A DNA stretch of 64,000 nt from Micromonospora sp. NBC_00421 (lineage in GTDB: Bacteria > Actinomycetota > Actinomycetes > Mycobacteriales > Micromonosporaceae). Positions 23,468 to 40,938 of the stretch are shown piece by piece. A program made the position numbers and the translations under genes. The notes beneath the pieces were generated by a model. That model was not told where the DNA came from, made no database searches, and saw nothing but the letters and a program-made list of their open reading frames with translations. The stretch's first letter is position 1; the number at the start of each line of letters is the position of its first letter. The DNA lies in contig NZ_CP107929.1 in assembly GCF_036017915.1 (NCBI RefSeq), positions 1,054,001 to 1,118,000 of the forward strand. Direction: 5' to 3'.

Positions 23468-23517
23468 GTCGACCGCCCACCCCTCCGGGCTGGGCCGAGC
23501 GCAGCGGGAGCCTGCCT

Positions 23518-25459: not shown

Positions 25460-25581
25460 ATTCGACGTCGTGGCAGCGGTGCCGTGGCCTCACCCGGCCC
25501 CACGGGTTACGGGTGCGAGCGCGCCTCGTCGCGCCGACGACCCCGCGCTCCACCCCCTGACTCGCCCGACGAGCGGTCAGC

Positions 25582-26751
25582 TCACTCAGCGCCCATGGTG
25601 ATGCGCAGGAACTCCTCTGCGACGGCCATCGGCGTCTGGGTAGCCACCTGCCGGGGTGCCTGCTGCGACGCCTGATGGTATGCATCCCGGTCCGCCAGCA
25701 GATCCGCCGTCGCACGCCAGAGCCGGGCGGGCCCGCTGTCCAAGTCGATCATCTCAAGAGCCGTGCCGGTAAGCGCGGGAAGATGTCCGAAGCCGCCGAC
25801 CACATTCAAACTCACGATCCGTCCGGCCTCGCCGACCAGCACAGGAAGATGCCCGAAGCCGTAACCGACGACCGGCGTACCCATCGACAGCGCCTCGGCC
25901 GCAACGTTGCAGAACGTCTCGGGACTAGTAGACGGCACGAGCACTACCGATGCGCCCCCGAGAAACGGCTGCGCGTCGGTCCAGGAAATGGCAGGCAGGA
26001 TCTCGACGCCCGGCAGCTTCGCGGCCAGCTGCCGGCACTCCGCAATCATGTCGCGCTGCATGCCGGGCCACAACTCGAAAGCCGCCTCGCCGAGCACGAT
26101 CTCCACCTGCCGGCCGAAACCCTCCGGATATGCCTTCAACAGGTCCGCCACTCCCTTGGACGGGTCGGCTCGAGCGAGGATCCGAACCGGCCCAGTCTGT
26201 CGCAGCTGCTCACGCACGGCATGGTCGGGAGGGTCGCCCGGGCACAACAGCGCGTTGGGCAGGGAGTGCCAGCCGGCGGAGTCGAGACCGGCCCGCGCGG
26301 CCTCGTCGATCAGAAAATCGCTGATGGAGATCACGGCGTCGGGCTTGAGCGCCAGACTCTTCGCCATCGGTTCGTCGACGCGTAGGAAGTAGACCATCAG
26401 CGCCGTACGGACTCCGGTCGGCGCCGCACCGAGATATCCGAGGCCCACACCAGCATCGGTCCAGCAGGCGACATCGATCTCGTGTTCGGCCATTAGGCTC
26501 AGGACCTCCTGCCGGAGCGGATCCGGGTCGTCCGGCATGACGTTCACGTCGTCGAACACGACCGGGCGCGACAGGGTCAAAGTCTCCAGGCGCACTGTGT
26601 CCGGCCCGTCCGCGGCGGTCGGCGGACCGGCGGCGATGATGATCGCGCGGTGGCCGAGTTCGCGCAGACCGTCGGCGAGTGACGCAATCCCGCGCTCCAC
26701 GCCAGCGGGCTCGTCCGGATTGTGCGTCAACAGGACCAAGGCTACATTCAT
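25582..26751 (-). CDS. Glycosyltransferase family 4 (GT-B fold)
   Basis: A 389-residue cytosolic GT-B enzyme. The N-terminus MNVALVLLTHNPDEPAGVERGIASLADGLRELGHRAIII is the usual acceptor-domain start with a glycine-rich turn. RILARADPSKGVADLLKAYP opens the donor domain, and VVLVPSTSPETFCNVAAEALSMGTPVVGYGFGHLPVLVGEAG contains the E-x7-E nucleotide-sugar motif of GT4. The start has GAGGAG six bases upstream. It is divergent from rmlB with a 283-base shared promoter region, and close to dTDP-sugar and preQ0 genes, so it may attach a deoxyhexose or hexose to the cluster product. Acceptor and donor cannot be read from sequence. Confidence 0.85.
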   Translation of the reverse strand: MNVALVLLTHNPDEPAGVERGIASLADGLRELGHRAIIIAAGPPTAADGPDTVRLETLTLSRPVVFDDVNVMPDDPDPLRQEVLSLMAEHEIDVACWTDAGVGLGYLGAAPTGVRTALMVYFLRVDEPMAKSLALKPDAVISISDFLIDEAARAGLDSAGWHSLPNALLCPGDPPDHAVREQLRQTGPVRILARADPSKGVADLLKAYPEGFGRQVEIVLGEAAFELWPGMQRDMIAECRQLAAKLPGVEILPAISWTDAQPFLGGASVVLVPSTSPETFCNVAAEALSMGTPVVGYGFGHLPVLVGEAGRIVSLNVVGGFGHLPALTGTALEMIDLDSGPARLWRATADLLADRDAYHQASQQAPRQVATQTPMAVAEEFLRITMGAE

Positions 26752-27034
26752 GGGTTCTCCTCGTAGCAGGAACTAAGGGTCCGGCCTCGTGACGTCATCG
26801 TCGCCGCCGGTCGCTGGGCGGCGCATCACGGGCTCTGACCGAGAGATCAGCGACGCACCTCCGATAGGACGGCGCTGATAGCGGCACGGAAGTCGCGCCA
26901 TACCGGCGGGCCGAGTCTCGGTCGGAGTTGGGGCAACACTTCGGGGGCGGCCGAGATGTGGGTGGCTACGGCCGACGGCCATGATGGTCGGGACCTGACG
27001 GAAAACATCGCTGTTTCGAGGATGGTGTGCGGCT

Positions 27035-28051
27035 GTGGACAGAGTTCTGGTCACCGGTGGCGCGGGGTTCATCGGTTCGCATTTCGTTCGGCGCCTACTA
27101 CGCGACGAGAACATCTCCCGCGTGACCGTGCTGGATGCGCTGACCTACGCCGGCACCGTCTACAACCTGGACGGTGTTCTGAACCATCCGCGGCTATCGT
27201 TCATCGAGGGGGACATCCTGGACGGCACCGTGGTCGCTGACCTGGTCGCAACCCACGACGCTGTCGTCCACCTCGCCGCCGAGTCACATGTCGACCGGTC
27301 ATTCGAGACAACGGAGAAGTTCGTCGCAACCAACGTGCAGGGCACCCGTATGCTGCTCGATGCCGCAGCGCAACTGGGCGTACGGAAGTTCGTGCACGTG
27401 TCGACCGACGAGGTGTACGGACCCTTGCCGACCGGGACCGCCTGCGAGAACGACCCGCTTCGGCCGACGAATCCATACGCCGCATCCAAGGCGGCCAGTG
27501 ACATGGTCGCAAACTCGTACTTCCACACCTACGGCGTACCGGTTTGCATCACCCGGTCCACGAACAACTACGGCCCGGGTCAGCACCATGAAAAGATCGT
27601 TCCTGCCTTCGTGACGAGCCTGCTCGCCGGAGGCCGCGTCAGCATCCACGGCCATGGTGAGCACATCCGGAACTGGCTACACGTCGAGGACAACTGCCGT
27701 GGCATAGAACTGGTGCTCCACAAGGGGATCCCGGGCGAGATCTACAACATCGGCGGCGGCACGGGGCTCACCAACAACGAGTTGGCCCGGACCGTCCTGC
27801 GCGCCTGTGGCGCAGACTGGAGTTCGGTCGACTACGTTTCCGACCGCAGGTCCAACGACATCCGATACTCGATGGACTGGACCAAGGCCGCCCGAGACCT
27901 CGGTTACCGGCCGATCCGGTCGCTCATCGAGGGCCTGGCCGAGACCGTGCAGTGGTACCGCAGGCACCCCGATCGCTGGGTGACTTCACCGACAGGCTCC
28001 GCCCAGGCGGCACAGGACGCCGCCCCCGACGTGGTGTCACCGGTCCCGTGA
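27035..28051 (+). CDS. rfbB: dTDP-glucose 4,6-dehydratase
   Basis: A 338-residue extended SDR enzyme that turns dTDP-glucose into dTDP-4-keto-6-deoxyglucose. Landmarks: VLVTGGAGFIGSHF (NAD site, residues about 4-17), VHLAAESHVDRS, VSTDEVYG (catalytic D125-E126), NPYAASKA (Y148, K152) and TRSTNNYGPGQHHEKIVP. All key residues are present. The start is a GTG. The stop overlaps the next gene's GTG by four bases, so the two are translationally coupled. It is the entry enzyme to 6-deoxysugars in this cluster. Confidence 0.94.
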   Translation: MDRVLVTGGAGFIGSHFVRRLLRDENISRVTVLDALTYAGTVYNLDGVLNHPRLSFIEGDILDGTVVADLVATHDAVVHLAAESHVDRSFETTEKFVATNVQGTRMLLDAAAQLGVRKFVHVSTDEVYGPLPTGTACENDPLRPTNPYAASKAASDMVANSYFHTYGVPVCITRSTNNYGPGQHHEKIVPAFVTSLLAGGRVSIHGHGEHIRNWLHVEDNCRGIELVLHKGIPGEIYNIGGGTGLTNNELARTVLRACGADWSSVDYVSDRRSNDIRYSMDWTKAARDLGYRPIRSLIEGLAETVQWYRRHPDRWVTSPTGSAQAAQDAAPDVVSPVP

Positions 28052-28902
28052 ACGGCCGTCTGCTGATCACCGGCGGCAGCGGAACGCTCGGCCGACAGCT
28101 GTTTCGCCGAGCCGTCGCGGCGGGCTGGGACGTGGTGGGCACCTACTTCGCGACACCGACTGAGACCGCCGACCAGCAGCTGGACATCTGCGATCCGGCA
28201 GCCGTACGAGAGCTGCTGCGCCGGATCCGGCCGGACGTGGTCATCCACGCCGCGGCTGCCCGCGACCGAAACGACTGGGAAGCCACCGCCGACGGAGCAG
28301 CCAACGTAGCCGTCGCAACCGCTGGTGTTCGACTCGTGCACGTGTCCAGCGATTCGATATTCTCCGGGCGGGCGATGCACTACACCGAGGATGCCACACC
28401 CGATCCGATATACCGGTACGGTGCTGCGAAAGCAGCCGCCGAGACCGCCGTCCGAGCGGTGCACCGCAACGCCGTCGTCGTCAGGACCTCGCTCATTCTG
28501 GGCGACGGACGTGGCGACCACGAGCGGTTGACTCACGACCTGGCGGCTGGTCGTATCCATGGCGGACTGTTCACCGACGAAGTCCGCAGCGCGGTGCACG
28601 TCATCGACCTTGCCGAAGCACTGGTCGAACTAGCCGCCAGCAGCTACCGCGGAATTCTGAACGTAGCGGGCGCAGATGCCGTGAGCCGGTATGAGCTCGG
28701 CCTGCTGGTGGCGGCGCGGGACGGCCTCGACCCGGCGACAATCCGGCCGATTCGCAGCGCGAATCCCCATCGACCGGCCGAGATTCGATTGACCATCCAA
28801 CGGGCACAGACGCTACTCGGTACCCGGCTGCGAGGCGCCCATGAGTTCCTCGCCGAACCCCTCGACACACGGCCTGCGGTACTCAGAGCACGCCATACAT
28901 GA
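28048..28902 (+). CDS. dTDP-4-keto-6-deoxysugar reductase (RmlD-like)
   Basis: A 284-residue SDR. LLITGGSGTLGRQLFRRA is the nucleotide site; the core has QLDICDPAAVRELLRRIRPDVVIHAAAARDRNDWEA, HVSSDSIFSG and YRYGAAKAAAE (Y124, K128). These fit the RmlD/dTDP-4-dehydrorhamnose reductase family. No RmlC epimerase gene is present, so the likely substrate is dTDP-4-keto-6-deoxyglucose itself and the product a C4-reduced sugar such as 6-deoxyglucose or fucose rather than rhamnose. The GTG start overlaps the rmlB stop (GTGA), which fixes the start. Confidence 0.82.
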   Translation: MNGRLLITGGSGTLGRQLFRRAVAAGWDVVGTYFATPTETADQQLDICDPAAVRELLRRIRPDVVIHAAAARDRNDWEATADGAANVAVATAGVRLVHVSSDSIFSGRAMHYTEDATPDPIYRYGAAKAAAETAVRAVHRNAVVVRTSLILGDGRGDHERLTHDLAAGRIHGGLFTDEVRSAVHVIDLAEALVELAASSYRGILNVAGADAVSRYELGLLVAARDGLDPATIRPIRSANPHRPAEIRLTIQRAQTLLGTRLRGAHEFLAEPLDTRPAVLRARHT

Positions 28903-28957
28903 TCGCACGAAACCCCAGGCCGGGCTCGCGTCGCCGGTGCGCCCGGCACCACCGTGG

Positions 28958-29143
28958 TCACCGCGTTTGTTTGCGGTACCGGGCCCGGACCGCCTCGGTG
29001 TCGGCGACCGTCATCGTGGTCCCGTCGATCGCGGTCATCAGCATGCCCGCCAGCGCTCGGCGTGCTGCGCTGTGGTGACCGCCGGGCCGCGTAGCAGCTC
29101 GAACAACGCCCGCAACAGCGCCGGCCCGAGCCGCTACCGGCAC
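28958..29143 (-). pseudogene. Remnant of IS4-like transposase
   Basis: Minus-strand fragments read LFELLRGPAVTTAQHAERW and, in a shifted frame, MLMTAIDGTTMTVADTEAVRARYRKQT. The AIDGTTMxVADTxAN pattern is the first catalytic Asp region of IS4-type DDE transposases of actinomycetes. Only about 60 codons remain, frameshifted. It sits between the sugar genes and the FkbM methyltransferase. Confidence 0.55.
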
Positions 29144-29294
29144 CGGTTCCCCGTACTAACCTCGGTCTTTCGTCCGGGTGGTCTTTCATAGCTGTTGGCG
29201 GATGGCTTTGGTTCGGGGGTTGGTCGGTCGGTTCGCTGGCATGCTGATGGTCACCCTGCGGCCAACAGCGTCGCGGTGAGGCGATCGCGACCGC

Positions 29295-30041
29295 TCAGGG
29301 AGCATGGCGTACCGCAGTGACCAGGAATGTGCGGATCTCGGGTGGGATCAGCGGTGACGGTTCGACGGCCACGGTGAAGTCGTACGCCTCGAGCAGGGCG
29401 GTGACGGCGGCCAGTCGGCCATCGAGGTCCTGGACCTCCAGGAGGAACTGGTCGATGAGTTTCCAATGATGCTGATCGATGCCACGGAGGACGTCGAGTT
29501 CGGCACCTTCGACGTCGATCTTCACCAGTCCGACGTGTTCGTCGGGGGCGAGGTAGTCGGAGAGGCGGTCGACTTGCACGGACACCGGTTCAGCGCGGTA
29601 GTGGCTCCGAATGAACGCCTCGGGCGCTTCGTGGGAGAGGACTGCGATCTGCAGTTCCTTGTCAGCCGGATAGCGGGTGGAATTGCCCGGTGCCAGCGGG
29701 TAGTACTCGAACAAGGCTCGTTCCTGTTGGGTGCCGAGTGCCCTCTGGTGTACTGACACTGCGCCGAGCTGCTGTTCCTCGATGTTTCGGCGCAACGCCT
29801 GCACCAGTTGCGGCATCGGCTCGAATGCGCGTACTCGCGCGTCAGGGAACTTGCGCTTCAGGAAGAGGGTGAAGAGCCCGATGTTGGCGCCGACGTCGAT
29901 GACGATTCCGTCGGGCTCGATCTGGACGCCGTCGTAGCATCGATGGGAGAAGATCTCGTCGTACTGCCAGCGGGCTTCGGCTTCGTATGGCGCCCATACG
30001 GTCAGGCGGTCATCGAGAGTGAATGGGCGAAGCTCGGTCAC
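29295..30041 (-). CDS. FkbM family methyltransferase
   Basis: A 248-residue SAM-dependent methyltransferase. GIVIDVGANIGLFTLFLKRKFPDARVRAFEPMP is the SAM motif, and LVKIDVEGAELDVLRGIDQHHW is the diagnostic FkbM strand-4 region. FkbM-family enzymes often O-methylate sugar hydroxyls or polyketide oxygens. The GTG at 30041 has GGAGG four bases upstream. It points the same way as queC, 80 bases apart, so both may share a transcript. In this context a sugar O-methylation is a reasonable guess, not shown by the sequence. Confidence 0.88.
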   Translation of the reverse strand: MTELRPFTLDDRLTVWAPYEAEARWQYDEIFSHRCYDGVQIEPDGIVIDVGANIGLFTLFLKRKFPDARVRAFEPMPQLVQALRRNIEEQQLGAVSVHQRALGTQQERALFEYYPLAPGNSTRYPADKELQIAVLSHEAPEAFIRSHYRAEPVSVQVDRLSDYLAPDEHVGLVKIDVEGAELDVLRGIDQHHWKLIDQFLLEVQDLDGRLAAVTALLEAYDFTVAVEPSPLIPPEIRTFLVTAVRHAP

Positions 30042-30122
30042 CGTACCTCCAGGTCACACGTCCGGCCCGACGATAGGGGGACGCTTCGATGAACAGGTGC
30101 AGCACCGGCGTAACTTGGGTGG

Positions 30123-30845
30123 TCACCGTGCCGGGTGGGCGAACTGCGTGACATCGTCGAGATAGTGGGTCGGATCCGGCACACCGGCCTCACGGAACGC
30201 TTCCCGTCGCTCGTAGCACGTTCCGCACGTTCCGCAGTGCTGGTCGCCGCCCTTGTAACAGGACCAGCTCAATGACAGTGGGGCACCCAGCCGGACGCCG
30301 TGTGCCGCGACCTCCGCCTTGGTCCAGGTCATGAACGGCACCTCTACCCGGGGAGTATGGAATCCCTCGTTGGCGACGGTCACCAGCTCGCAAAGGGCCG
30401 TGACGAAGGCAGGACGGCAGTCCGGATACACGAAGTGGTCGCCGGAGTGCATGCCGAGCGCCACCACGCCGGCGCGGTGGGCGACGCCGACGGCGACCGC
30501 GACGTTGGCCAGGATCGCGTTGCGGTTCGGGACGACCGTGGCGCGCATGGACGCCTCCGCGTAATGACCGTCCGGGACGGTCATGGTGTCGTCGGTCAGT
30601 GCCGATCCAGGGAGCAGCCCGCCCAGACCACTGAGGTCGACCACTTGATGCACGGCGCCGTAGTGATCGGCGACGGCCCGAGCTGAGTCGATCTCGCGGC
30701 GATGCCGCTGACCATAGTCCACGGTGACAGCGATCAGGCTGAATCGCAATGCTGAGTAGTACGCCATGAGAGTAGTGGAGTCCATTCCACCGGAAAGGAC
30801 TATGAGGGCGGAGGAAGAGCCTGATCGATTCTCGTCGTGGGTCAT
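30123..30845 (-). CDS. queC: 7-cyano-7-deazaguanine (preQ0) synthase QueC
   Basis: A 240-residue enzyme converting 7-carboxy-7-deazaguanine to the nitrile preQ0 using ATP and ammonia. ALIVLSGGMDSTTLMAYY is the PP-loop ATP site, VTVDYGQRHRREIDSA and VVPNRNAILANVAVAVG are family blocks, and the end carries the zinc Cys cluster SCYKGGDQHCGTCGTCYERREAF. All expected residues are present. It diverges from queD, folE and queE across a 266-base region that must hold both promoters. No queF or tgt gene is nearby. Confidence 0.95.
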   Translation of the reverse strand: MTHDENRSGSSSALIVLSGGMDSTTLMAYYSALRFSLIAVTVDYGQRHRREIDSARAVADHYGAVHQVVDLSGLGGLLPGSALTDDTMTVPDGHYAEASMRATVVPNRNAILANVAVAVGVAHRAGVVALGMHSGDHFVYPDCRPAFVTALCELVTVANEGFHTPRVEVPFMTWTKAEVAAHGVRLGAPLSLSWSCYKGGDQHCGTCGTCYERREAFREAGVPDPTHYLDDVTQFAHPAR

Positions 30846-31111
30846 CGGATACCTCCAGGTGCGTCGGCACGAACAGGTGCAGTCGGCCCGAAGGGGCGGG
30901 GGCCAGAAAGGTGCTGTCCTGGATCACTGTCGTCCGGGTCGGGTCGGCATGCATCACGGCGGACGACCGAAGTTTTCGAGCCGAGCCACCGAAGCGGCCG
31001 AGCCGTCAGCGCCCCGTCGCGTTCTACGGTCGGCCGACCCTCAACCTCTCGGTCAACGCCGTGATGTAACGGGGCGCCCGGGTCGGCCATTGTTGGCGTA
31101 GGAGGTTCGAC
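30846..31111. promoter_or_regulatory. Divergent promoter region between queC and queD
   Basis: A 266-base intergenic region serving two divergent transcripts of the same pathway. I looked for the small preQ1 aptamer pattern and saw no convincing one. GGAGG lies before queC and GTAGGAGG before queD. Control of both arms from one operator, for example by the LuxR regulators of the cluster, is plausible but unproven. Confidence 0.5.
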
Positions 31112-31474
31112 ATGACATTCCGCATCAGCAAAGAGTTTCATTTCTCGGCCAGTCACTCGCTCGCCGGCCTGGCGGCAGAGCACCCGTGCGCTCGCATGCA
31201 TGGACACAATTACGTCGTGGCATTGGAGCTGACCGTTGGCCGGGACGCCTTGAGCGACGTGGGCTTCGTCCGTGACTACGGCGACCTGGCCGACTTCTCC
31301 CGATGGCTGGATCAGAAGGTCGACCACCGTCACCTGAACGACGTGGTGGACCGGAACCCGTCGGCCGAGAATCTGTCGCGCTGGATTTACGACCAGTGGC
31401 ACGAACGCTATCCGGAGTTGTCCGGGGTCCGGGTGTCCGAGACGCCTAAAACCTGGGCGGAGTACCGCCCGTGA
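31112..31474 (+). CDS. queD: 6-carboxytetrahydropterin synthase QueD
   Basis: A 120-residue member of the T-fold family that converts dihydroneopterin triphosphate to 6-carboxy-tetrahydropterin. Zinc ligands H15 (in FSASHSL), H30 and H32 (in MHGHNY), the catalytic Cys C26 (HPCARMHG) and the late HLNDVV and PSAENLSRWIYDQW blocks are intact. A strong GGAGG precedes the ATG. It is the first gene of queD-queE-folE on the + strand. Confidence 0.95.
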   Translation: MTFRISKEFHFSASHSLAGLAAEHPCARMHGHNYVVALELTVGRDALSDVGFVRDYGDLADFSRWLDQKVDHRHLNDVVDRNPSAENLSRWIYDQWHERYPELSGVRVSETPKTWAEYRP

Positions 31475-31515
31475 ACGCCGGTGTAGACGAGAACCGGGAG
31501 GCAGGTGATGCCGTG

Positions 31516-32237
31516 ATGGAGCCGATACTCGTTGTGAACGAGATTTTCGGCCCCACCTGAGCACCGTTCAAGGCGAGGGCCCGTCATCAGGTCAGCGGTG
31601 CGCCTTCCTCCGATTGGGTGGCTGCAACCTGTCGTGTCACTGGTGCGACACGCCGTACACCTGGGACTGGACCGGTGCCGCCGACTCGGGAACGGCCTAC
31701 GATCCGCGGGTCGAACTGCACCGGATGCCATGGCGCACGGTGCACGACCGGTTGGCGGCGATGGATGTGCCGCTGGTGGTCATCTCGGGCGGCGAACCGC
31801 TCAATCAACAGGCCCGGTTGCGACCGTTGATCGCGGCGTTGACGGCGGACGGCCACCGCCTGGAGATCGAGACGAACGGCACCGTGACCCCGGCCGCCGC
31901 GCTGGTCGACCTTGGTGTCCGGTTCAACGTCTCCCCCAAGCTGGCCCATGCAGGCGACCGGGAATCTCGCCGGCTGCGGCCGGAGGCGCTGGCCGCGCTG
32001 GCCGCCGTTCCCGGAACCGCCTTCAAGTTTGTTTGCCGCTCGGTGAGTGACCTGGACGAGGTGGCGACCGTGGTGGCAGCCTACGGAACCCGTCCTGTGT
32101 GGATCATGCCGGAGGGACGGACGGCGGACGGCGTTGCGCAGGGGCTGCGAGAACTCGGCGACGAAGTGGTCGCCCGAGGCTGGAATCTGACAACTCGGCT
32201 GCATATCGCCGTATGGGGCGAACGGAGAGGGAAATGA
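31516..32237 (+). CDS. queE: 7-carboxy-7-deazaguanine synthase QueE, broken by a one-base frameshift
   Basis: From ATG 31516 the frame reads MEPILVVNEIFGPT and hits TGA at 31558. Homology resumes one frame over as STVQGEGPSSGQRCAFLRLGGCNLSCHWCDTPYTWDW. This carries the radical SAM Cys-x3-Cys-x2-Cys cluster and runs on through LVVISGGEPLNQ, EIETNGTVTP, FNVSPKLAHAG, KFVCRS and WIMPEG to the stop. One missing base near 31555-31560 explains everything. In the intact frame downstream no normal start precedes the cluster. The enzyme needs the N-terminal strand, so the gene is either inactive, rescued by slippage, or a sequencing error. The rest of the pathway is intact, which favours error or very recent damage. 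The stop overlaps folE by four bases. Confidence 0.85.
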
Positions 32238-32806
32238 CAACGACGGAAAGTGCATCCGGCGCACAGGATCCGCTGGAGCACATTGCGCGGCAGTTGCTGA
32301 TCGAGATCGGAGAGGATCCGGACCGCGATGGCCTGAAGGAGACACCGGCACGCTTCGCTCGCTGGTGGCGGGAGTTCAGTAGCTTTCAGGCCGGCGACGT
32401 GGGTACGCGCTTCCCGTTGCGGACCGACGGGCAAATCGTCATGGTTTCGGATATCAAGGTGTGGTCGCTGTGTGAGCACCACCTGCTGCCGTTCTCGTGT
32501 TCGCTGACCATTGCGTACCGGCCGGACGGCGACGTGTTGGGCTTGTCGAAGTTCGCGCGCATCGCGCACCGCCACGCCCACCGACTACAGGTGCAGGAAC
32601 GCCTCGTGCAGGACATCGCCACCGAAATCACCGCGATCACGGGTTCCGTCGACATCGCCGTGATCGGTCATGGCGAGCACCTGTGCATGAGCATGCGGGG
32701 GGTGCGCACTACCGCCCAGATGACGTCTTCGGTCTTCCGAGGCGTCTTCCAGGAACACGGCCCGGCCCGGCAGGAACTGGTGGCCACGGTCTTTTCGCGG
32801 CGCTGA
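32234..32806 (+). CDS. folE: GTP cyclohydrolase I FolE
   Basis: A 190-residue enzyme making dihydroneopterin triphosphate from GTP, the first step toward preQ0. Landmarks: DPDRDGLKETPARFARWW, WSLCEHHLLPF (zinc ligands C80 and H83), GLSKFARI, RLQVQERLVQDIA and GEHLCMSMRGVR (third zinc ligand C151). The ATG overlaps the queE stop (ATGA), fixing the start. Lying inside a preQ0 operon, this copy is probably dedicated to the cluster rather than to folate. Confidence 0.95.
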   Translation: MTTTESASGAQDPLEHIARQLLIEIGEDPDRDGLKETPARFARWWREFSSFQAGDVGTRFPLRTDGQIVMVSDIKVWSLCEHHLLPFSCSLTIAYRPDGDVLGLSKFARIAHRHAHRLQVQERLVQDIATEITAITGSVDIAVIGHGEHLCMSMRGVRTTAQMTSSVFRGVFQEHGPARQELVATVFSRR

Positions 32807-32829
32807 ACCCCGCCTGGAACGGAGCGCAG

Positions 32830-34068: not shown

Positions 34069-34115
34069 TGCTGTGGCGAGGGCCGCCGGGCCACAACGGC
34101 ACGGCGGCCGGCTCG

Positions 34116-37049
34116 TCAGTTCGTCGGGCGCCCGCGCGCCGGCAGGCCATCGGCCAGCAGCGGCCAGAACGCCGGGTCGCGAAACAGTTGCGGCAGGTCG
34201 ATACGCCCGGTGATACCGAGCTTGCGGTATGCGCTCGACAGGTGCAGTTCGACCGTCCGCCGAGTGATGTGCCGCGTCTGAGCGATTCCGTTGTTGGTGG
34301 CGCCCCGGATCGCGTCGATGAGAATTTGCCGCTCCCGGCGGGTCAGTGTGAGCACGCCTCGCAGGGACATCTGCCGTGGCGCTCGCTCGTGCGCGACGAG
34401 CAGTTGTTGGCGGGAGCGCAGCGCCAAGGCGCCGGCGGCGCACCGGTCGGCGATATGCACCGCCTGCGTAAGAGCTGTGATCGCTTCCTGGCGGGTCAGC
34501 GATCCGCTCAGCGCCGAACCCAGATCGGCGAGCGCATGCGCCGCGTCCAGGCTTTCGGCGGGACTCAGCAGAGCCACTGCCTCGCGTAGCAGACGGTGTT
34601 TCTCTGCCGTCCCGCTGGCACATGCCTGGGCCCGCAGTGCCCGGCCGCGCTCCAGGGGCGACCCGACCGCGTCGGCGAACTTGAGCTGGGCACAGGCTAC
34701 CCGTACGGCCTGCCGTCGACGCCCCACCGCCACCAGCAGGTCGGCGCCGTACCGGCGCCACATGAGACTCCCCGGCAGCCGAATGCCTGCCTGGTACGCG
34801 CGGGCTCGCAGGTCGGCGAGGTCTCGGCGGGCTCCGGTGAGGTCACCGTCACCGGCCCGCATCCGGGCCCGGGCCAGCAGTAACTCGCTGTAGTGCCAAC
34901 CGGGCGGCAGCTCGTCGATCAGCCGGTAGCGACGCAGCAGAGTACGTGCGTCGTCCGGCTCGCCGCGGCTGACGTGTACGTCGGCGAGCAGTCCCACCAG
35001 GATCACGGTGATCGGATCGTGCGGTGCTTCCGGCCGCTCTCCCGGCTCCCACAGTGCGTCGTTGAGACATCTGCCGGCCTCTTCCAAGTCTCCGACGGCC
35101 AGCGCGATCCGGCCCCGGACCGAGGCCAGCCACCCCTTCGGTGACGACCGGCCCTCGGACTCCGACCGCTCGAACCGGTTCAGCCAGGAGGTTGCCTCGT
35201 GATGATCGCCGGCGTCCGCAAGCACCGCCAACGCCGCGGTCCGTGCCAGCGGGTGAAGTTGCAGCCCCGTTCCGTCCTGACCCAATGCCTGCCGGGCTTC
35301 CCGCACCGCCTCCCGCGGGTCCGAATCGACGAGATAGCGGAGGAACGCATCCAGAGCAGACCACGCGGTCTGCACGGGTCGCCGGTCGGTGTCGTCGCCC
35401 TCGAGCACCGCCATCGCGTCCGGTGGGCTCAGCAGGCCCTGAATCCGCCGGCGCACCTGCGCTGGGCGGCCAAGGAAGGGCCGGTGCAACTTCTGGTACC
35501 CCTCGGCCCAGCCCTCGAACACCGTCCCGCGGACGCTCGTATCGATGCGGTCGAGCAGGTCGTGGTGGTGTGCGCCCAGCTCCGTTTCGTACAGGACACG
35601 GCCGATCTGCCCGAGCATCCCCGCCACCACGGCGCGGTCGTTGTCCTCCGACAGCACCGCGACGGCCGCGAGCAGCCCGTTTTCCGGATCCCGCCGGATT
35701 TCGAGATGAGCGAGCCGCAGCATGGCCTCCCGGTGCTGCGTACCGGTGGCGACGCGGGCCGCCAATTCCAGACAGCGTCCTTCGACGCCGTCCGCGCCGG
35801 TCTCCCGGGCGTGATCGGCGGCCTGCAGGAGGACCTGAACCGGCCATGACCCGCTCGGTGCGACCGTCGAGGCGGTCAGGTGTGACGCGATGCGATCCGC
35901 CGGAGCGTTCAGGACGAACAGGTACTCGGCGATGCTGAGGTGCGTCGCACTGCGGGCCATCGCCGTCATCGACGCCGCGATCGCGGTGCCCAGGGCCGGG
36001 TGCCGCAGGGGAAGACTCTCGGCGTCCCCGATCAACCTCATGCGGATCAGCAGGTCCAGAGCGGTCAGCACCTCGTGGACGTCGAGGCCGGTGAGGTGGG
36101 CGACAAGCGCCGCGTCGACACCGCCGTGGCTCTGGGCCACCGCGATGGTCTCCACGATTCGCATCAGCGCGGTCCCCAGCCGGTTCAACCGCCCGCGCAC
36201 CAGTCGCAAGGCGTCGTGCAGTACGACCTCGTCGACACTATGAGGCAAACCGGAGCCGGCGGAGCGGCTGCGTAGGACCTGGGCGAGTTCCCCGATCATG
36301 TACGGGCTGCCGCCGCACCACCTGTGGACCTCGGCGACGAAGCGTCCGGCCGGCCGGGACGGCAACAGGGTGCACAACAGGTCGCCGGTCTCCGCCTCGG
36401 TCAGCCCGTCGAGTTCCATCCAGGTCGCGTCGGTCAACATCTCCGCCAAGTGCTCCGGCGCGGTGGGCGGTTCGCCGGCGCGGATCGACACCAGCAGAAG
36501 GATCGGTAGTCGCGCGCACGCCTCCAACACCTGCCGCAGCCACTGGAGTGCCGGGCGGCCGGCATACGTGATGTCGTCCACCGCGACGACCAGCGGCCCC
36601 CGCTCAGTCAGCGCGGCGACAGCCGCCCGTGCCGCGGACACCTGCCGGTCGCGGTCTGCCCAGTCGTCTGTTCCGGTGGGTTGCCAACCCAGCAGGGGTG
36701 GCCGCGTCTGGCAGGTCGACTGCCGCGCATCGGATATCGGTGAGACCTCTTCGGCGAGGCATCGAAGAAGGTCGGTGACCAGCGCGGTCGGCACCTGACG
36801 ATCCGCCAGCCGGCAGCGGACGCGTACAGCGAACCCGCCTTCCTGGCGGCAGGCTCCCACGAACTCGTCGAGCAGCGCGCTGCGGCCCACTCCGGGTCCG
36901 CCGGTGACCGCGACGCGGACGAGCCCCGCATCCGCACTCACTGCCCTTGCCTGCCTCAGCGCCCGCAAGTGGGCCAGTCGTCCCACCAACCGGGGTGGAT
37001 TGTCCCCGGGCCACAAGCCGCTTCCTCCAGTCTCTGGATCGGCGGTCAA
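34116..37049 (-). CDS. LuxR-family giant regulator (LAL type) 1
   Basis: A 977-residue ATP-binding LuxR regulator. The N-terminal AAA/STAND domain has LVGRLAHL, a Walker A GGPGVGRSALL (about residues 50-60) and PLVVAVDDITYAG (Walker B). A long helical, TPR-like middle follows. The C-terminal HTH is LTLTRRERQILIDAIRGATNNGIAQ...ITRRTVELHLSSAYRKLGI (about 905-965). LAL regulators often switch on natural-product clusters in response to a small ligand. It overlaps the upstream methyltransferase by four bases and so is translationally coupled to it. Confidence 0.92.
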   Translation of the reverse strand: MTADPETGGSGLWPGDNPPRLVGRLAHLRALRQARAVSADAGLVRVAVTGGPGVGRSALLDEFVGACRQEGGFAVRVRCRLADRQVPTALVTDLLRCLAEEVSPISDARQSTCQTRPPLLGWQPTGTDDWADRDRQVSAARAAVAALTERGPLVVAVDDITYAGRPALQWLRQVLEACARLPILLLVSIRAGEPPTAPEHLAEMLTDATWMELDGLTEAETGDLLCTLLPSRPAGRFVAEVHRWCGGSPYMIGELAQVLRSRSAGSGLPHSVDEVVLHDALRLVRGRLNRLGTALMRIVETIAVAQSHGGVDAALVAHLTGLDVHEVLTALDLLIRMRLIGDAESLPLRHPALGTAIAASMTAMARSATHLSIAEYLFVLNAPADRIASHLTASTVAPSGSWPVQVLLQAADHARETGADGVEGRCLELAARVATGTQHREAMLRLAHLEIRRDPENGLLAAVAVLSEDNDRAVVAGMLGQIGRVLYETELGAHHHDLLDRIDTSVRGTVFEGWAEGYQKLHRPFLGRPAQVRRRIQGLLSPPDAMAVLEGDDTDRRPVQTAWSALDAFLRYLVDSDPREAVREARQALGQDGTGLQLHPLARTAALAVLADAGDHHEATSWLNRFERSESEGRSSPKGWLASVRGRIALAVGDLEEAGRCLNDALWEPGERPEAPHDPITVILVGLLADVHVSRGEPDDARTLLRRYRLIDELPPGWHYSELLLARARMRAGDGDLTGARRDLADLRARAYQAGIRLPGSLMWRRYGADLLVAVGRRRQAVRVACAQLKFADAVGSPLERGRALRAQACASGTAEKHRLLREAVALLSPAESLDAAHALADLGSALSGSLTRQEAITALTQAVHIADRCAAGALALRSRQQLLVAHERAPRQMSLRGVLTLTRRERQILIDAIRGATNNGIAQTRHITRRTVELHLSSAYRKLGITGRIDLPQLFRDPAFWPLLADGLPARGRPTN

Positions 37050-38005
37050 GCGGACTCCCCAGGCCGGGCGACGAGGACCAGCCCTTGATCCCCGATGGCA
37101 TGCGGTCGTCGGGCGAAATGGCGGTTGAGGGCCGGCACGAGAGCCTCCCGCATGTCGGCGGCACGCGGATGTCCGTCGTACCAGAAATTCACCAGCAGGT
37201 CCGCGGCTGCGCGGATCCGCTCAGCCAGACTCGGTTCCGTGAAATGCAGGGCGGCTTCGGTGCGGCTCAGAGAGAGCCGGCCGAAACCATGTTCGGACAG
37301 CGTCTGGGCCGCGGTCGCGAGCAGATAGCCCTGGTGATCGTGGGATTCCCCGGCGATCGGCACGCAGACCTCGTTGAGTAGGGCTACCACCTCGTTGTCC
37401 GGCGATCCCCCGATGAGCACCACTTTGGCCTCGCCATGCGTGGGGTCGCACACCCGGGCGATCTCCCGCACGGCCTTGACCGGATTGTCGACGTAGGGCA
37501 ATACCCAGGCGGAGAACACCGCGTCGAAGGTGCCGTCCGAGAAGGGCAGAGCCTCCGCCCGTCCGGGATGGACCTCCAGTTCACCCACGTCGGTGCTGCC
37601 CAGGCCCAGTCGCAGCCGCTCGACACGGTTGACGTGCGGCTCGACGGTGACGCATCGACCGAGGTCGCCTGCGACGGCACGGGTGATCTCCCCAGTTCCA
37701 CCGCCCACGTCGAGGACCTGATGGTTACCCGTCAGGGCCGCTCGGACGACGGCCATCTCCTCCCGGCGCTCCAGCCGATCGACAAAGTTCTGCCAGCCTC
37801 CGGCGCTCAACCGATGCGGTCCCCGATAACGCTGTGGTACCCGGTCCAGGGGCCCACACCAGGGGTGTGTCCGAACCTCGGCCGCGCTGAGGGTGTTCGC
37901 TGCCGCACGTGCCCCCTGCTGAACATGCATGATCTTCTCCTCACGCGATCCGGAACCTCCGGCTTCGGCCGCGCACCCACTGACCGCCGAGTTCGGTACC
38001 TTCAC
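37046..38005 (-). CDS. Class I SAM-dependent methyltransferase between two LAL regulators
   Basis: A 319-residue enzyme from the GTG at 38005, which has GAGGAGG five bases upstream and overlaps the preceding regulator's stop (GTGA). A shorter form from ATG 37930 also has a good ribosome-binding site (GAGGAG). Motifs: HQVLDVGGGTGEITRAVAG (SAM site), CVTVEPH, FDAVFSAWVLPYVDNP and KVVLIGGSPDNEVV. The substrate is unknown. Being embedded in a regulator operon, it could tailor the cluster product (for example O-methylation of a sugar) or modify a signal. The two possible starts would give proteins differing by 25 residues. Confidence 0.85.
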   Translation of the reverse strand: MKVPNSAVSGCAAEAGGSGSREEKIMHVQQGARAAANTLSAAEVRTHPWCGPLDRVPQRYRGPHRLSAGGWQNFVDRLERREEMAVVRAALTGNHQVLDVGGGTGEITRAVAGDLGRCVTVEPHVNRVERLRLGLGSTDVGELEVHPGRAEALPFSDGTFDAVFSAWVLPYVDNPVKAVREIARVCDPTHGEAKVVLIGGSPDNEVVALLNEVCVPIAGESHDHQGYLLATAAQTLSEHGFGRLSLSRTEAALHFTEPSLAERIRAAADLLVNFWYDGHPRAADMREALVPALNRHFARRPHAIGDQGLVLVARPGESA

Positions 38006-40938
38006 GGAGCCTCCTCAGTTGGCGGTGTTGAGTCTTTCAATCCAGCAGGCGAGAGACATCTGTCAACTGACGCATCCTCCGGTGGCTCGGCGGGCTCACG
38101 CCGCCTGCTTTCCCCCGCGATCTCCGCGCGGCTTCGCAGCTCCAGCTTGGTGAGGATGTGCGATACGTGGGTCTGTACCGTGCGGGGGGAGAGAAACATG
38201 GCCCGTGCGATGTCGGCTGTCGAATGGGCCTCCGTAACCAGGTGGGCGATCTCGATCTCGGTCGGGGTCAGCGCCCCCCACCCCCGCTGCGGGCGAACAG
38301 GTCTGCGGCCACGGACACCACGGCGAATGCCGGCACCACGCAGACGCGACTCTGCCCGGCGGATGTCCCAATGGGCACCGAAACTCGCGAAAAGATCGAT
38401 CGCCTCACTGGCCGCGCGCCGGGCGCCGGTAGTGTCCCCGCACCTGGCGAGGACCACGGCGAGGTCTTCCAGAGTGCCGGCGAGCTCGATCAATGCGCCC
38501 GACGTCCGATAGTGCGACTCCGCTTCGCGCAGCGGAACGGGGTCGACCTCGGCCAGACCGCGACATCGGTCGTAGGCAGCGCCAGCCCGTGCCCTCGGCG
38601 CCTCTGCCTCCGCCTCCGATCGGCAGGCGGTGAGGGCTGCGGCGAGCGCCGCGTGGTCGTCGACGGCCAGCGAGAGCCGGACCAGATCGGGTAGCCACTG
38701 GTGGCTCAGCGTCATCTCGCCAGGCCGCCGGTCCAGCAACGCGGTGAGAAGTGACGTCGCTCGCTCCAGGTCGCCATCCTGCTCCGCCCGCAACGACTGC
38801 GCGGCGACCAGGAAATCCCTGTTCTCCCGGTCGGCAATGGTAGAGACCGGATACTTCAGCCCGGCCTGGATATGCGTCGCCGTGTCCCGCGCGTTGTGCT
38901 GGTGGGCGGCGATAAGCGCGGCGACCCCGTGGAGCAACAGGGCGGGGCCGCGCTCTCGCAGACCGTGGTAGGTGGCCGCGGCCAAGCTCCGGTCGCCCTC
39001 GCCGAGCTCAGCGAGGGCGTCGTCCCACCGACCGGTCCAGTACATCAGGACCGCTGCGGTGACGCCGGGCGCGACGTGGCCGGCTCTCTCGCCGCCCAGT
39101 TCCCGGAGGGTGGTCTCGGCCGCTGACCACCGGCTCAGGCTCTGCAGCGAGAAGATCCGTCCGTGCATCAGCAAGGCGCGCAAGTCGGCGTGTTCGTCGG
39201 AAAGCCCGAGAACCTCGATCGCTCGGTCGGCGCACGCGAGGGCGTCCGCATGCTTCCGGCGCACCGAATGGATGATCGACAAACTCGTCAGGGCGTAGGC
39301 GATCGTGAAGGCGTCGGCGGCGGCCTCGCCGACGGCCAGAGCCTCGCGGGCGGTGGCCTCAGCCAGTCCGATCGCGCCTACCCCGGCGCGCTGGAACATC
39401 GCCAGGGACGCCAGCAGCCGCCCACGCCAGACCGGTGGCAGATCGTGGCCCAGCAGTGCCTGGCTGAGGGCCGCCGCCGCGGCGTCGTTCTGCCCGCCGC
39501 TGAACCGGGAGCGGGCGAGGACCCAGAACATGCGACCCTGATCTTCGGGGTCGGGGGCGATGGCCAGTGCCTGACGTGCACATTCCTCCGCCTCCTCATG
39601 CTCGCCGAGTCTCATCAGGACCCATGCCAGGGCGACCAGCAGGGCCGGCCGCGCGCCGTCGGCGTCGACGCCGTGGCGCAGCTGTTTACGGAGAAGCTCG
39701 GCGGCGAGGCCCGGTGCCTCCACCGTCAGCGCGTTCGCCTCCCGGAACAGCCAGTTCCGAGACCACGGATCATTGGGCAGATCCGCCGTCAGCAGCTGTT
39801 GCGCCACCTGTACGGACGTGGCACCGTTCGCCGCCAGTGCCCGTGCCGCGTCGCGATGTAACGCCGTCCGTATCGCCAACGGCAGCCCATGGTAGATCGC
39901 CTGGTGAATCAGCGGATGCCGAAACGCCATCCGACGGTCCGCCGGCACAAGGATCCCGGCGTCCATGGCCCGCTCGACGTCCGCGGTCAAATCGATGGCC
40001 GGCAGGCCGACGAGCACTGCCAGATCTGTCACCGTGAACTCCGTGCCCAGCAACGCCGCCAGACGCACCAGGTCGGCCGTACCCGCAGGAACGTCAGTCA
40101 ACCGGCTGCTCAGCGCATTGCCGAGGGTGATTCCCACTGCCGCGTCCGGCACGTCGGCCGTACCGGCCGCCACCCGTATGAGCCCCTCTCGCCGTAACGC
40201 GTCGACCAGCTCACAGAGAAACAGAGGGTTACCCAGCGCCTGCGCCGTGACCTTGGTGAGGCCGCGGCCCGGTGGCGCGCCGACCATGCCTGCGACGAGG
40301 TCGGCGACCTCTGGCGCCTGCAGCGGGCCAAGCCTCAGCTCGGCCCCACGGTTGTCCCGCATCGCCGTCCGCAACTGTCGCAGCAGCGGCCGGCGGGGAT
40401 CCGGCCGACTTGCGAAGACAAGCGACAAGGGAAGTTCAGCCGCGATCGACATGAGGCGATGCATCAACATCAACGAGACGTCGTCAGCCCAGTGCAGATC
40501 GTCCAGCACCAGAACTGTGTTCTTCGCGGCGCAAGACTCCTCGACCAACTCCATGAGCAACTCGGCGGCGGCCGCTTGGGCAGTGTCCACACCGGCCATC
40601 AGGCCCGGACGGCGCAGGAGCACGAGGTCGGCGATCCGCGCCCGGCGTGGGTCTGGCGAGTTGGACCGCACCTGCAAGCAGTCCATCATCAGACGCAGCG
40701 GGAGCGACCGTCCGAGAAGATCGGCTGTAGCCCACAGGACCTCGCAACCCCGCTCTCGAGCGATATCCAGCCCCACGGCGAGCAGGGACGACTTGCCGAT
40801 CCCCGGGTCACCTTCCACCCACAGCATGCCTCCGACGCCGCCGCGCACCTGGTCGATCACGTGGTGCAGCGCCGACAACTCGGCTTTACGCCCCACCCAC
40901 ACATTCGGAGATCGAACCCGCATCGCGATTTCTCCCAA
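38002..40938 (-). CDS. LuxR-family giant regulator (LAL type) 2
   Basis: A 978-residue LAL regulator and the first gene of the three-gene minus-strand operon. VWVGRKAEL, Walker A EGDPGIGKSSLL (about 42-53) and NTVLVLDDLHWADD (Walker B) mark the ATPase. A long TPR-like middle is followed by the HTH LTPTEIEIAHLVTEAHSTADIARAMFLSPRTVQTHVSHIL. It is a distant paralogue of the 34.1-37.0 kb regulator. Its stop overlaps the methyltransferase start by four bases. Confidence 0.92.
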   Translation of the reverse strand: MGEIAMRVRSPNVWVGRKAELSALHHVIDQVRGGVGGMLWVEGDPGIGKSSLLAVGLDIARERGCEVLWATADLLGRSLPLRLMMDCLQVRSNSPDPRRARIADLVLLRRPGLMAGVDTAQAAAAELLMELVEESCAAKNTVLVLDDLHWADDVSLMLMHRLMSIAAELPLSLVFASRPDPRRPLLRQLRTAMRDNRGAELRLGPLQAPEVADLVAGMVGAPPGRGLTKVTAQALGNPLFLCELVDALRREGLIRVAAGTADVPDAAVGITLGNALSSRLTDVPAGTADLVRLAALLGTEFTVTDLAVLVGLPAIDLTADVERAMDAGILVPADRRMAFRHPLIHQAIYHGLPLAIRTALHRDAARALAANGATSVQVAQQLLTADLPNDPWSRNWLFREANALTVEAPGLAAELLRKQLRHGVDADGARPALLVALAWVLMRLGEHEEAEECARQALAIAPDPEDQGRMFWVLARSRFSGGQNDAAAAALSQALLGHDLPPVWRGRLLASLAMFQRAGVGAIGLAEATAREALAVGEAAADAFTIAYALTSLSIIHSVRRKHADALACADRAIEVLGLSDEHADLRALLMHGRIFSLQSLSRWSAAETTLRELGGERAGHVAPGVTAAVLMYWTGRWDDALAELGEGDRSLAAATYHGLRERGPALLLHGVAALIAAHQHNARDTATHIQAGLKYPVSTIADRENRDFLVAAQSLRAEQDGDLERATSLLTALLDRRPGEMTLSHQWLPDLVRLSLAVDDHAALAAALTACRSEAEAEAPRARAGAAYDRCRGLAEVDPVPLREAESHYRTSGALIELAGTLEDLAVVLARCGDTTGARRAASEAIDLFASFGAHWDIRRAESRLRGAGIRRGVRGRRPVRPQRGWGALTPTEIEIAHLVTEAHSTADIARAMFLSPRTVQTHVSHILTKLELRSRAEIAGESRRREPAEPPEDASVDRCLSPAGLKDSTPPTEEAP

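What the first reader, a model, noticed from the sequence alone, without database searches (positions are those of the whole stretch)
25582..40938. preQ0 plus 6-deoxysugar plus glycosyltransferase cluster: candidate dapiramicin-like 7-deazapurine glycoside pathway
Seen: folE, queD, queE and queC (all steps from GTP to preQ0), a coupled dTDP-glucose 4,6-dehydratase and 4-ketoreductase with no RmlC epimerase, two glycosyltransferases, two methyltransferases and two LAL activators, with no queF, tgt or dpd genes. Known (recalled, to be verified): dapiramicins, reported from a Micromonospora strain, have a pyrrolopyrimidine-carbonitrile base carrying 6-deoxyglucose and a 4-O-methylated glucose. 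Inference: preQ0 supplies the nitrile base, RmlB plus the reductase give 6-deoxyglucose, two glycosyltransferases build a disaccharide, and FkbM or the class I enzyme methylates it. A gap in the match is that no PurA/PurB-like gene for C4 amination is present.
Basis: partly seen in the sequence, partly recalled or inferred. Interest (0 to 1): 0.82.

Follow-up and report, generated by a model that had tools for sequence, protein, structure and literature searches.

The report
Antibiotic cluster with interrupted queE gene
A Micromonospora gene cluster looks like the missing recipe for the antifungal dapiramicin, and one of its essential genes is cut by a stop codon in the same way in related bacteria, as if the ribosome jumps over a few letters to finish the protein.

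Summary
Each structural element has a candidate gene: class I methyltransferase for the base, RmlB plus an RmlD-like reductase for 6-deoxyglucose, two glycosyltransferases, FkbM for 4-O-methylation. The block 25562-38107 is conserved at 93-94% DNA identity in M. wenchangensis; the second LAL lies outside it. The product is inferred; no chemistry was tested.

Its normal start (..LVVNEIFGPT) ends at a TGA; the enzyme body (VQGEGPS..) resumes 8 nt after the Thr codon in another frame. Of 22 interrupted queE genes found (Micromonospora, Streptomyces, Streptomonospora), 21 have a stop (TGA, TAG or TAA) directly after that Thr codon; gaps are 5-8 nt. In 21 of them the upstream codons vary almost only at third positions, and gap length changed at least 8 times on the tree. 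Tubercidin- and toyocamycin-type clusters are among them; the same clade also holds 13 uninterrupted genes. Best reading: a short forward ribosome hop from the Thr codon to a near-cognate triplet. The evidence is comparative, not experimental.

The parts
25582..26751 (-). GT4-type glycosyltransferase, proposed to attach the first (6-deoxyhexose) sugar to the base
   Evidence: Pfam Glyco_trans_1_4 40.4 bits; homologues at 51-63% in Streptomyces clusters that also hold the class I methyltransferase and QueC
27035..28051 (+). dTDP-glucose 4,6-dehydratase RmlB
   Evidence: TIGR01181 374.5 bits, over cut-off
28048..28902 (+). RmlD-like 4-ketoreductase, proposed to give dTDP-6-deoxyglucose
   Evidence: Pfam RmlD_sub_bind 144.5 bits for the longer ORF, below the RmlD equivalog cut-off; proposed start overlaps the rmlB stop
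29295..30041 (-). FkbM-family methyltransferase, proposed sugar 4-O-methyltransferase
   Evidence: TIGR01444 121.5 bits, over cut-off
30123..30845 (-). QueC, preQ0 synthase
   Evidence: Pfam QueC 191.4 bits; TIGR00364 166.3 bits, over cut-off
31112..31474 (+). QueD, 6-carboxytetrahydropterin synthase
   Evidence: Pfam PTPS 106.5 bits; TIGR03367 81.4 bits, just under its cut-off of 89.25
31516..31557 (+). 5' coding segment of queE (MEPILVVNEIFGPT); last codon ACC 31555-31557 is the proposed take-off codon. Start ATG 31516 or GTG 31513 is inferred
   Evidence: N-terminal frame conserved at protein level in 21 interrupted genes
31558..31562 (+). proposed coding gap TGAGC, beginning with the in-frame stop TGA 31558-31560
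   Evidence: identical in M. wenchangensis
31563..31565 (+). proposed landing triplet ACC
   Evidence: identical to the take-off codon; pairing tally
31566..32237 (+). QueE body (VQGEGPSSG.., radical SAM, CDG synthase)
   Evidence: Radical_SAM 38.1 bits and QueE models below their equivalog cut-offs; dN/dS about 0.13 against M. wenchangensis
32234..32806 (+). FolE, GTP cyclohydrolase I
   Evidence: Pfam GTP_cyclohydroI 173.1 bits
32830..34068 (+). GT2-type glycosyltransferase, proposed to add the second sugar
   Evidence: Pfam Glycos_transf_2 85.5 bits for the longer ORF
34116..37049 (-). LAL regulator 1 (AAA_16 + LuxR HTH)
   Evidence: in the block shared with M. wenchangensis
37046..38005 (-). 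class I SAM methyltransferase, proposed O6-methyltransferase of preQ0 (HuiC role)
   Evidence: Pfam Methyltransf_11 62.6 bits; 51-60% homologues in related preQ0 clusters
38002..40938 (-). LAL regulator 2, adjacent but outside the conserved block
   Evidence: only 33 residues match in M. wenchangensis and DNA synteny ends at 38107

Best explanation
Window 25562-38107 is a compact gene block for an O6-methyl-preQ0 N2-disaccharide of the dapiramicin type. FolE, QueD, QueE and QueC make preQ0. The class I methyltransferase makes m6preQ0. RmlB and the RmlD-like reductase make dTDP-6-deoxyglucose from dTDP-glucose supplied elsewhere in the genome. The two glycosyltransferases (GT4 first, GT2 second, by inference) attach 6-deoxyglucose and then glucose, and the FkbM enzyme 4-O-methylates the glucose. 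Within it, QueE is made by discontinuous decoding: ribosomes translate the 5' segment to ..F-G-P-T, meet a stop codon in the A site, and the peptidyl-tRNA-Thr lets go of ACC (ACC, ACT or ACA in relatives). It re-pairs after a gap of 2-5 nt at an ACC/GCC-type triplet and continues with V-Q-G-E-G, giving the ordinary QueE sequence. Shown here: gene content, conservation, the interruption and its conservation, and protein-level selection on both segments. Inferred: the product, the enzyme order, the hop itself, and any regulatory purpose (a throttle or physiological gate on antibiotic synthesis).
For: Cluster: gene calls (6-8, 27, 28); dapiramicin A structure and the HuiC role (passages); block conserved at 93-94% DNA in M. 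wenchangensis; methyltransferase, GT4 and preQ0 genes recur together in Streptomyces, with FkbM and GT2 also in L128. QueE: same break in M. wenchangensis; 21 interrupted of 46 QueE rows on the tree, plus one on an S. chartreusis plasmid. Stop directly after the Thr codon in 21 of 22: TGA 11, TAG 8, TAA 2. In the 10 upstream codons of 21 interrupted genes, 97.6% of differences are at third positions and none at second positions. At least 8 gap-length changes on the tree, covering all three frame relations (5, 6, 7, 8 nt). In 10 of 21 no ATG, GTG, TTG or CTG lies in the body frame between the last upstream stop and the third body codon. The triplet before the V codon can pair with the take-off tRNA-Thr, allowing G.U, in 19 of 21. 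ACT is the take-off codon in 7 of 21 against 3.6% of Thr codons in the bodies, and ACG in 0 of 21 against 30.5%. The interruption sits in a tubercidin-type cluster (L151: GMP reductase, phosphoribosyltransferase, UbiD and Nudix) and a toyocamycin-type cluster (L127). The published tubercidin cluster makes tubercidin in S. coelicolor M1154 although its radical SAM protein TubB is annotated at only 139 aa (passages); a GTG giving 139 aa exists in L145, whose QueE is close to that of L151.
Against: No protein or metabolite data. HuiC and HuiG sequences could not be fetched, so homology to them is untested; by position GT2 matches HuiG, by co-occurrence GT4 is the constant GT, so which one acts first is open. 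The landing triplets also encode T, A or S in the body frame, so their conservation could be coding rather than pairing. Two of 22 landing triplets (TCC) mismatch, and L061 has AGA rather than a stop. The lenient pairing rule also lets 11 of 21 pair one codon later. 11 of 21 do have an ATG/GTG/TTG/CTG-type codon in the body frame near the junction, CTG in the window. No conserved stem-loop: a helix of 4 bp or more encloses the site in only 8 of 22; folding z-scores are -1.71 (interrupted) against -0.48 (uninterrupted) in one stretch but no lower in two others. For the window and M. wenchangensis alone, 2 of 3 changes in the upstream 14 codons are non-synonymous, and body dN/dS reaches 0.53 in one of 8 pairs. 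13 relatives inside the same clade have an uninterrupted queE, and of 7 further loci read, 6 gave a junction, all uninterrupted. The counts are not corrected for shared descent. The genome has another QueE at 5.96 Mb that could supply the step. RmlD-like stereochemistry is untested.
Confidence: 0.6

Rival explanations
1. queE is joined by conventional recoding that differs by lineage: -1 frameshifting where the gap is 5 or 8 nt, +1 where it is 7 nt, stop-codon readthrough where it is 6 nt.
For: In the window the run GGC CCC ACC TGA would allow a -1 slip on C CCC. Six-nt gaps keep the frame, with one stop.
Against: It needs three mechanisms at one homologous site. L129 (GGT CCT ACT TGA CC) has no such run. 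Gap length changed at least 8 times on the tree. Products would carry extra residues, whereas the uninterrupted clade members read have none between GPT and the V/I codon.
Confidence: 0.14
2. The upstream segment is a leader peptide and the body starts independently at a codon near or after the stop (reinitiation).
For: 11 of 21 members have GTG, TTG or CTG in the body frame near the junction. PGAP annotates the S. chartreusis gene from the GTG at VQGEG.
Against: 10 of 21 (L131, L141, L144, L145, L147, L148, L150-L152, L061) have no ATG/GTG/TTG/CTG there. The upstream segment corresponds to the N-terminus of uninterrupted QueE, which aligns to solved QueE chains (LVVSEIFGPTVQGEG against IPVLEIFGPTIQGEG). 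It is under protein-level selection.
Confidence: 0.12
3. queE is a dead gene here and the second QueE locus, or a paralogue, supplies the step.
For: The genome has another QueC, QueE and QueD set at 5.96 Mb. G782, G794, G990 and G1109 carry both interrupted and uninterrupted QueE.
Against: The body evolves under purifying selection (dN/dS about 0.13 against M. wenchangensis; 0.13-0.53 in 8 pairs) and stays open to its stop. The interruption persists across genera. Of 16 interrupted genomes, 11 have only that one match at E <= 1e-40; a more distant QueE could be missed at that threshold.
Confidence: 0.1
4. The cluster makes another m6preQ0 or preQ0 glycoside, not dapiramicin itself (other sugars, linkage or methylation site).
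For: GT specificity, reductase stereochemistry and FkbM position are not determined by sequence. Related clusters lack the RmlB/RmlD pair.
Against: Each element of dapiramicin A has one candidate gene among the identified enzymes of the conserved block. Dapiramicins come from a Micromonospora (passage).
Confidence: 0.3

Closest known systems
Huimycin cluster (huiA-G, Kutzneria albida; PMC7439116, passages and one part of the text seen)
   Same: QueC, QueD, QueE and FolE plus a SAM methyltransferase and a glycosyltransferase; the queD-queE-folE-GT order matches the window
   Different: One GT and N-acetylglucosamine; no RmlB/RmlD or FkbM in the seven listed genes; hui sequences could not be compared here, and no queE interruption is mentioned in what I saw
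Dapiramicins A and B (Micromonospora sp. SF-1917; passages)
   Same: Predicted aglycone and disaccharide match the gene inventory
   Different: PMC7439116 (2020) states that its gene cluster was not yet known; product untested here
Translational bypass of phage T4 gene 60 (passages in PMC5009743 and PMC11194080)
   Same: Take-off codon followed by a stop, peptidyl-tRNA landing on a matched or near-matched codon, product from two disjoint frames
   Different: Gap of 2-5 nt rather than 50; a chromosomal enzyme gene shared by several genera; landing codon often only near-cognate; no conserved stem-loop found
Short stop hops seen with synthetic constructs (reviewed in PMC5009743, passages)
   Same: Matched codons flanking a stop, distance of a few nt
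   Different: Natural and conserved here; the 2016 review says no occurrences of in-frame stop hopping are known
Mitochondrial bypass elements of Magnusiomyces (review passages)
   Same: Insert tolerated in translation, imperfect take-off/landing match in several cases
   Different: Bacterial, one gene family here, with a stop codon retained

Membership tests
m6preQ0 N2-glycoside (huimycin/dapiramicin) cluster | Full preQ0 gene set | tested here: met
   FolE, QueD, QueE body and QueC by profiles; queE is interrupted
m6preQ0 N2-glycoside (huimycin/dapiramicin) cluster | O6-methyltransferase homologous to HuiC | tested here: inconclusive
   A class I methyltransferase recurs in related clusters, but no HuiC sequence was available for comparison
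m6preQ0 N2-glycoside (huimycin/dapiramicin) cluster | Genes for 6-deoxyglucose, second sugar and 4-O-methyl (dapiramicin) | tested here: inconclusive
   RmlB met its cut-off; RmlD-like, GT4, GT2 and FkbM present but their specificity cannot be read from sequence
m6preQ0 N2-glycoside (huimycin/dapiramicin) cluster | Product isolated | not testable with these tools
   No metabolite data
Toyocamycin/tubercidin-type nucleoside cluster | GMP reductase, phosphoribosyltransferase, PurA/PurB or UbiD genes | tested here: not met
   No such gene among the window genes scanned; they are found in relatives L127 and L151
Queuosine tRNA pathway | QueF and Tgt using this preQ0 | tested here: not met
   No QueF hit in the genome; the one TGT homologue lies at 5.97 Mb near another QueC/D/E set
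Programmed translational bypass | Stop codon directly after the take-off codon | tested here: met
   21 of 22 interrupted genes; L061 has AGA
Programmed translational bypass | Landing codon matched to take-off codon | tested here: inconclusive
   Thr codon in 8 of 22; pairing possible with G.U in 19 of 21, plus L178 by inspection
Programmed translational bypass | Take-off stem-loop | tested here: inconclusive
   4 bp or more in 8 of 22; not in the window
Programmed translational bypass | Nascent-peptide signal | not testable with these tools
   VVNE.FGPT is constant in the 21 but nearly as constant in uninterrupted clade members
Programmed translational bypass | Fused protein product detected | not testable with these tools
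   Needs proteomics or a reporter

The most novel reading that the evidence does not exclude
Actinomycete 7-deazapurine antibiotic clusters (dapiramicin-, toyocamycin- and tubercidin-type) share a naturally conserved short forward ribosome hop in queE. A stop codon is retained by selection and skipped by peptidyl-tRNA-Thr, perhaps as a translational gate that ties antibiotic synthesis to the state of the translation machinery. This would be a conserved stop hop in a bacterial chromosomal gene.
Probability: 0.55. Interest if true: 0.95.

Novelty: new variant of a known kind. Interest (0 to 1): 0.86.

Why it matters
A candidate dapiramicin cluster would fill a gap stated in print in 2020 and make the antifungal's pathway testable. 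More widely, the review PMC5009743 (passages) speaks of a paucity of known uses of bypassing, says it would broaden interest to find a regulatory one, and says no occurrences of in-frame stop hopping are known. A conserved hop in queE of cluster types that already express in laboratory Streptomyces would make that question directly testable. It also suggests that annotation can mis-start or truncate this enzyme (TubB listed at 139 aa; the S. chartreusis gene begun after the stop).

Tried and rejected
Sequencing error as the cause of the queE break: rejected, since the break is identical in M. wenchangensis and interruptions occur in other genera. A slippery-run -1 frameshift as the general mechanism: rejected, because gap lengths vary and L129 has no run. 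A conserved hairpin: not supported. C4 amination as a missing step: not needed given the aglycone. HuiC/HuiG homology: could not be tested, as no hui sequence was reached; searches gave no locus that I could identify as Kutzneria albida. Phylum-wide sampling for the methyltransferase found only the window's own genome (1 of 396). GT2 alone is a poor marker: of 20 loci fetched around GT2 hits (one of them the own genome's second copy), one (G298) has the cluster. The paper search for queE and frameshift was uninformative because the term also matched 'queen'.

Rows dropped or not read: L155 and L156 (same bodies as L110 and L111) before the tree. In one search, 37 of 57 listed matches were read at the junction (loci, three of them, and four further contexts); the 20 unread ones are at 52% identity or less, apart from one partial match at 68%. 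QueE loci whose junction does not fit the pattern (for example L100, L102, L104, L114, L116-L119, L122) were not among the 48 rows; they show no interruption. Seven further loci (L160-L166) were read: six matched, none interrupted; they are not in the tree as such (L165 and L166 are the same places as L146 and L149). L178 was found after the tree and is in the 22 but not the 21. Of 18 plasmid hits two were opened; H1 was judged by its annotated length only.

Full report
OBSERVATION. The window is G000:C1:1054001-1118000 of a 7.23-Mb single-contig genome; the tool puts it in the genus of G298, which I identify below as Micromonospora wenchangensis. The radical SAM gene queE is there too, but not as one frame. 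QueD ends at 31474. A frame with a Shine-Dalgarno-like stretch (by eye) and ATG 31516 reads MEPILVVNEIFGPT and then TGA (31558-31560). The enzyme body [28 protein letters not shown].. runs from 31566 to 32237 in another frame, with no ATG, GTG or TTG before residue 17 of the body; a CTG lies just before it.

CLUSTER UNIT. Of 354 genomes of the same family, 118 match the GT2 protein at E <= 1e-20. I fetched 20 kb around 20 of the hits, one of them the own genome's second copy, and one, G298, has the whole cluster. DNA synteny covers 25562-28906 and 29274-38107 at 93-94% and ends at both sides there; only 33 residues of LAL2 match. So the unit is GT4 to the class I methyltransferase.

CO-OCCURRENCE. 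In 42 contexts examined, the class I methyltransferase sits with QueC in the window, L056, L057, L058/L131 (the same S. iranensis contig by length), L059, L061, L128, L129, L130 and L152. GT4 is also present in all of these except L061 and L152. FkbM and GT2 are added in the window, L056 and L128. RmlB plus the RmlD-like reductase at over 90% identity occur only in the window and L056. The methyltransferase is therefore the constant partner of these clusters and the sugar genes vary, as expected for one aglycone with different sugars. By position GT2 corresponds to HuiG, while by co-occurrence GT4 is the constant GT; the order of the two is open.

PRODUCT. In PMC8450960 (passages) dapiramicin A is m6preQ0 with the 2-NH2 linked to 4'-(4''-O-methyl-glucopyranosyl)-6'-deoxy-glucopyranosyl. 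PMC7439116 (passages and one part) reports that huiC deletion abolishes huimycin, proposes methylation of preQ0 by HuiC and glycosylation by HuiG, and says the dapiramicin cluster was undiscovered. A search for dapiramicin listed 7 papers, of which I saw passages of three; none of the seven titles reports the cluster. The window's genes cover each step. dTDP-glucose would come from an RmlA homologue elsewhere (1915368, below its cut-off); RmlC homologues also lie elsewhere. I infer a dapiramicin-type product and have no chemistry.

TRNA ROLE. No QueF hit in the genome. One TGT homologue, closest to archaeosine TgtA models but under their cut-off, lies at 5.974 Mb, about 15 kb from a second QueC, a Cx14CxxC-type QueE and a QueD. 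That stretch also encodes a PKS-NRPS with an aminotransferase and a carbamoyltransferase. The window's preQ0 genes are not needed to explain it.

THE INTERRUPTED QUEE. The break is identical in M. wenchangensis and recurs in S. iranensis, S. acidiscabies and Streptomonospora nanhaiensis with different letters. I searched with the QueE body: 392 genomes of genus g50 (49 with a hit at E <= 1e-40; g50 is Streptomyces, since the S. iranensis contig lies in G1109), 394 of the class (19), 35 and 100 of two families (4 and 6 at E <= 1e-60) and 296 relatives (13 at E <= 1e-70; largely genomes already seen among the hits). Contexts were fetched for 35 loci. With a fixed junction pattern, 48 rows were read, 46 distinct: 21 interrupted and 25 not. 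One more, on an S. chartreusis plasmid, makes 22. Seven loci read later gave six junctions, none interrupted. All interrupted rows fall in one supported clade of 34 that also holds 13 uninterrupted ones; at least 4 gains or losses are needed.

WHAT IS CONSTANT AND WHAT VARIES. Between the Thr codon and the V codon the interruption is 5 nt in 3 genes, 6 in 5, 7 in 10 and 8 in 4. A stop follows the Thr codon in 21 of 22: TGA 11, TAG 8, TAA 2; L061 has AGA, which from general knowledge is a rare codon in such genomes. Gap length changed at least 8 times and stop type at least 6 times among the 21 on the tree. Yet the 10 codons upstream (LVVNEIFGPT) differ almost only at third positions: 97.6% of pairwise differences, none at second positions, 21 genes. 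In the window/M. wenchangensis pair alone there are only 3 changes in 14 codons and 2 are non-synonymous, so the signal comes from the wider set. Body dN/dS is 0.13-0.53 in 8 pairs. Both pieces therefore look translated and needed, while the gap is not read in one fixed frame. The upstream piece is the normal QueE N-terminus: an uninterrupted relative aligns it to solved QueE chains.

WHY A HOP. Frameshifting and readthrough would need a different trick for each gap length. Reinitiation lacks ATG, GTG, TTG or CTG in the body frame in 10 of 21, though 11 of 21 have one. A hop needs one rule: peptidyl-tRNA-Thr leaves ACC/ACT/ACA and re-pairs with the triplet just before the V codon. That triplet is ACC in 8, GCC in 9, GCT in 2, GCG in 1 and TCC in 2 of 22. 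With G.U allowed it can pair in 19 of 21 (anticodon assignments recalled); the same lenient rule lets 11 of 21 pair one codon later. With ACC or ACT take-off its third base is always a pyrimidine (20 of 20 against 55% of comparable codons), and the one G-ending triplet goes with the one ACA. ACT is over-used (7 of 21 against 3.6%) and ACG unused (0 of 21 against 30.5%) as take-off codon. These tallies ignore shared descent. Against this, the triplets also encode T, A or S in the body frame, and no common stem-loop was found: 4 bp or more in 8 of 22; mean folding z -1.71 against -0.48 for 13 uninterrupted genes from -50 to +50, but 0.27 against -0.15 and -0.26 against -0.69 in two other stretches.

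FUNCTION OF INTERRUPTED GENES. L151 (GMP reductase, phosphoribosyltransferase, UbiD, Nudix) and L141 (GMP reductase, UbiD) look tubercidin-type, and L127 (GMP reductase, PurA, PurB, phosphoribosyltransferase, QueC) toyocamycin-type. In the tubercidin paper PMC6112128 (passages) the cluster gives tubercidin in S. coelicolor M1154 while its radical SAM protein TubB is listed at 139 aa, far short of QueE; in L145, whose QueE groups with that of L151, a GTG gives exactly 139 aa. I did not see the tub sequence itself, nor test whether S. coelicolor has a QueE of its own. The toy cluster of S. diastatochromogenes is active in S. albus (PMC7492574, passages); its toyC sequence was not seen.

LITERATURE. 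PMC5009743 (passages) describes stop hops in synthetic constructs, says no occurrences of in-frame stop hopping are known, and would welcome regulatory bypassing. PMC11194080 (passages) describes gene 60. Searches listed no paper whose title or shown abstract start reports recoding of queE or of 7-deazapurine clusters; one search was uninformative. Only open-licence papers were searched, and most listed papers were not opened.

VERDICT. Cluster: a dapiramicin-type member of a known kind, likely but unproven. queE: a conserved interruption that is hard to explain without discontinuous decoding, most simply a short forward hop.

Noticed in passing
G000:C1:5957859-5986000 (L004, L005): A second QueC/QueE(Cx14CxxC)/QueD set lies near an archaeosine-type TGT homologue, a carbamoyltransferase and a PKS-NRPS with an internal aminotransferase: possibly a natural-product cluster that uses a TGT-like enzyme.
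   Followed up: partly
window 23282-23480 (+): Strong cobalamin riboswitch (99.7 bits); the gene it controls was not identified.
   Followed up: no
L131 and L058 (S. iranensis): Beside the full cluster lie pieces that look like a broken second copy (QueC and class I methyltransferase in parts, another LAL).
   Followed up: no
L126/L146, L127/L149, L148/L130, L131/L138: Four genomes (G794, G782, G990, G1109) carry both an interrupted and an uninterrupted queE (interrupted named first).
   Followed up: partly
L128 (G1025): A Streptomyces cluster with the methyltransferase, LAL, QueC, FkbM, GT2, GT4, FolE, QueE and QueD but no RmlB/RmlD match within the 20 kb fetched: a relative with a possibly different first sugar.
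   Followed up: partly
L177 (S. angustmyceticus plasmid p1): A preQ0 cluster with a queE annotated at full length, a class I methyltransferase, an Asp/Asn hydroxylase-domain protein and a 2OG-Fe oxygenase; product not looked up.
   Followed up: no
G000:C1:3220267-3221484 (L044): A second GT2 homologue (55%) of the window's own genome without preQ0 genes within the 20 kb fetched; similar GTs occur in other genomes of the family.
   Followed up: partly
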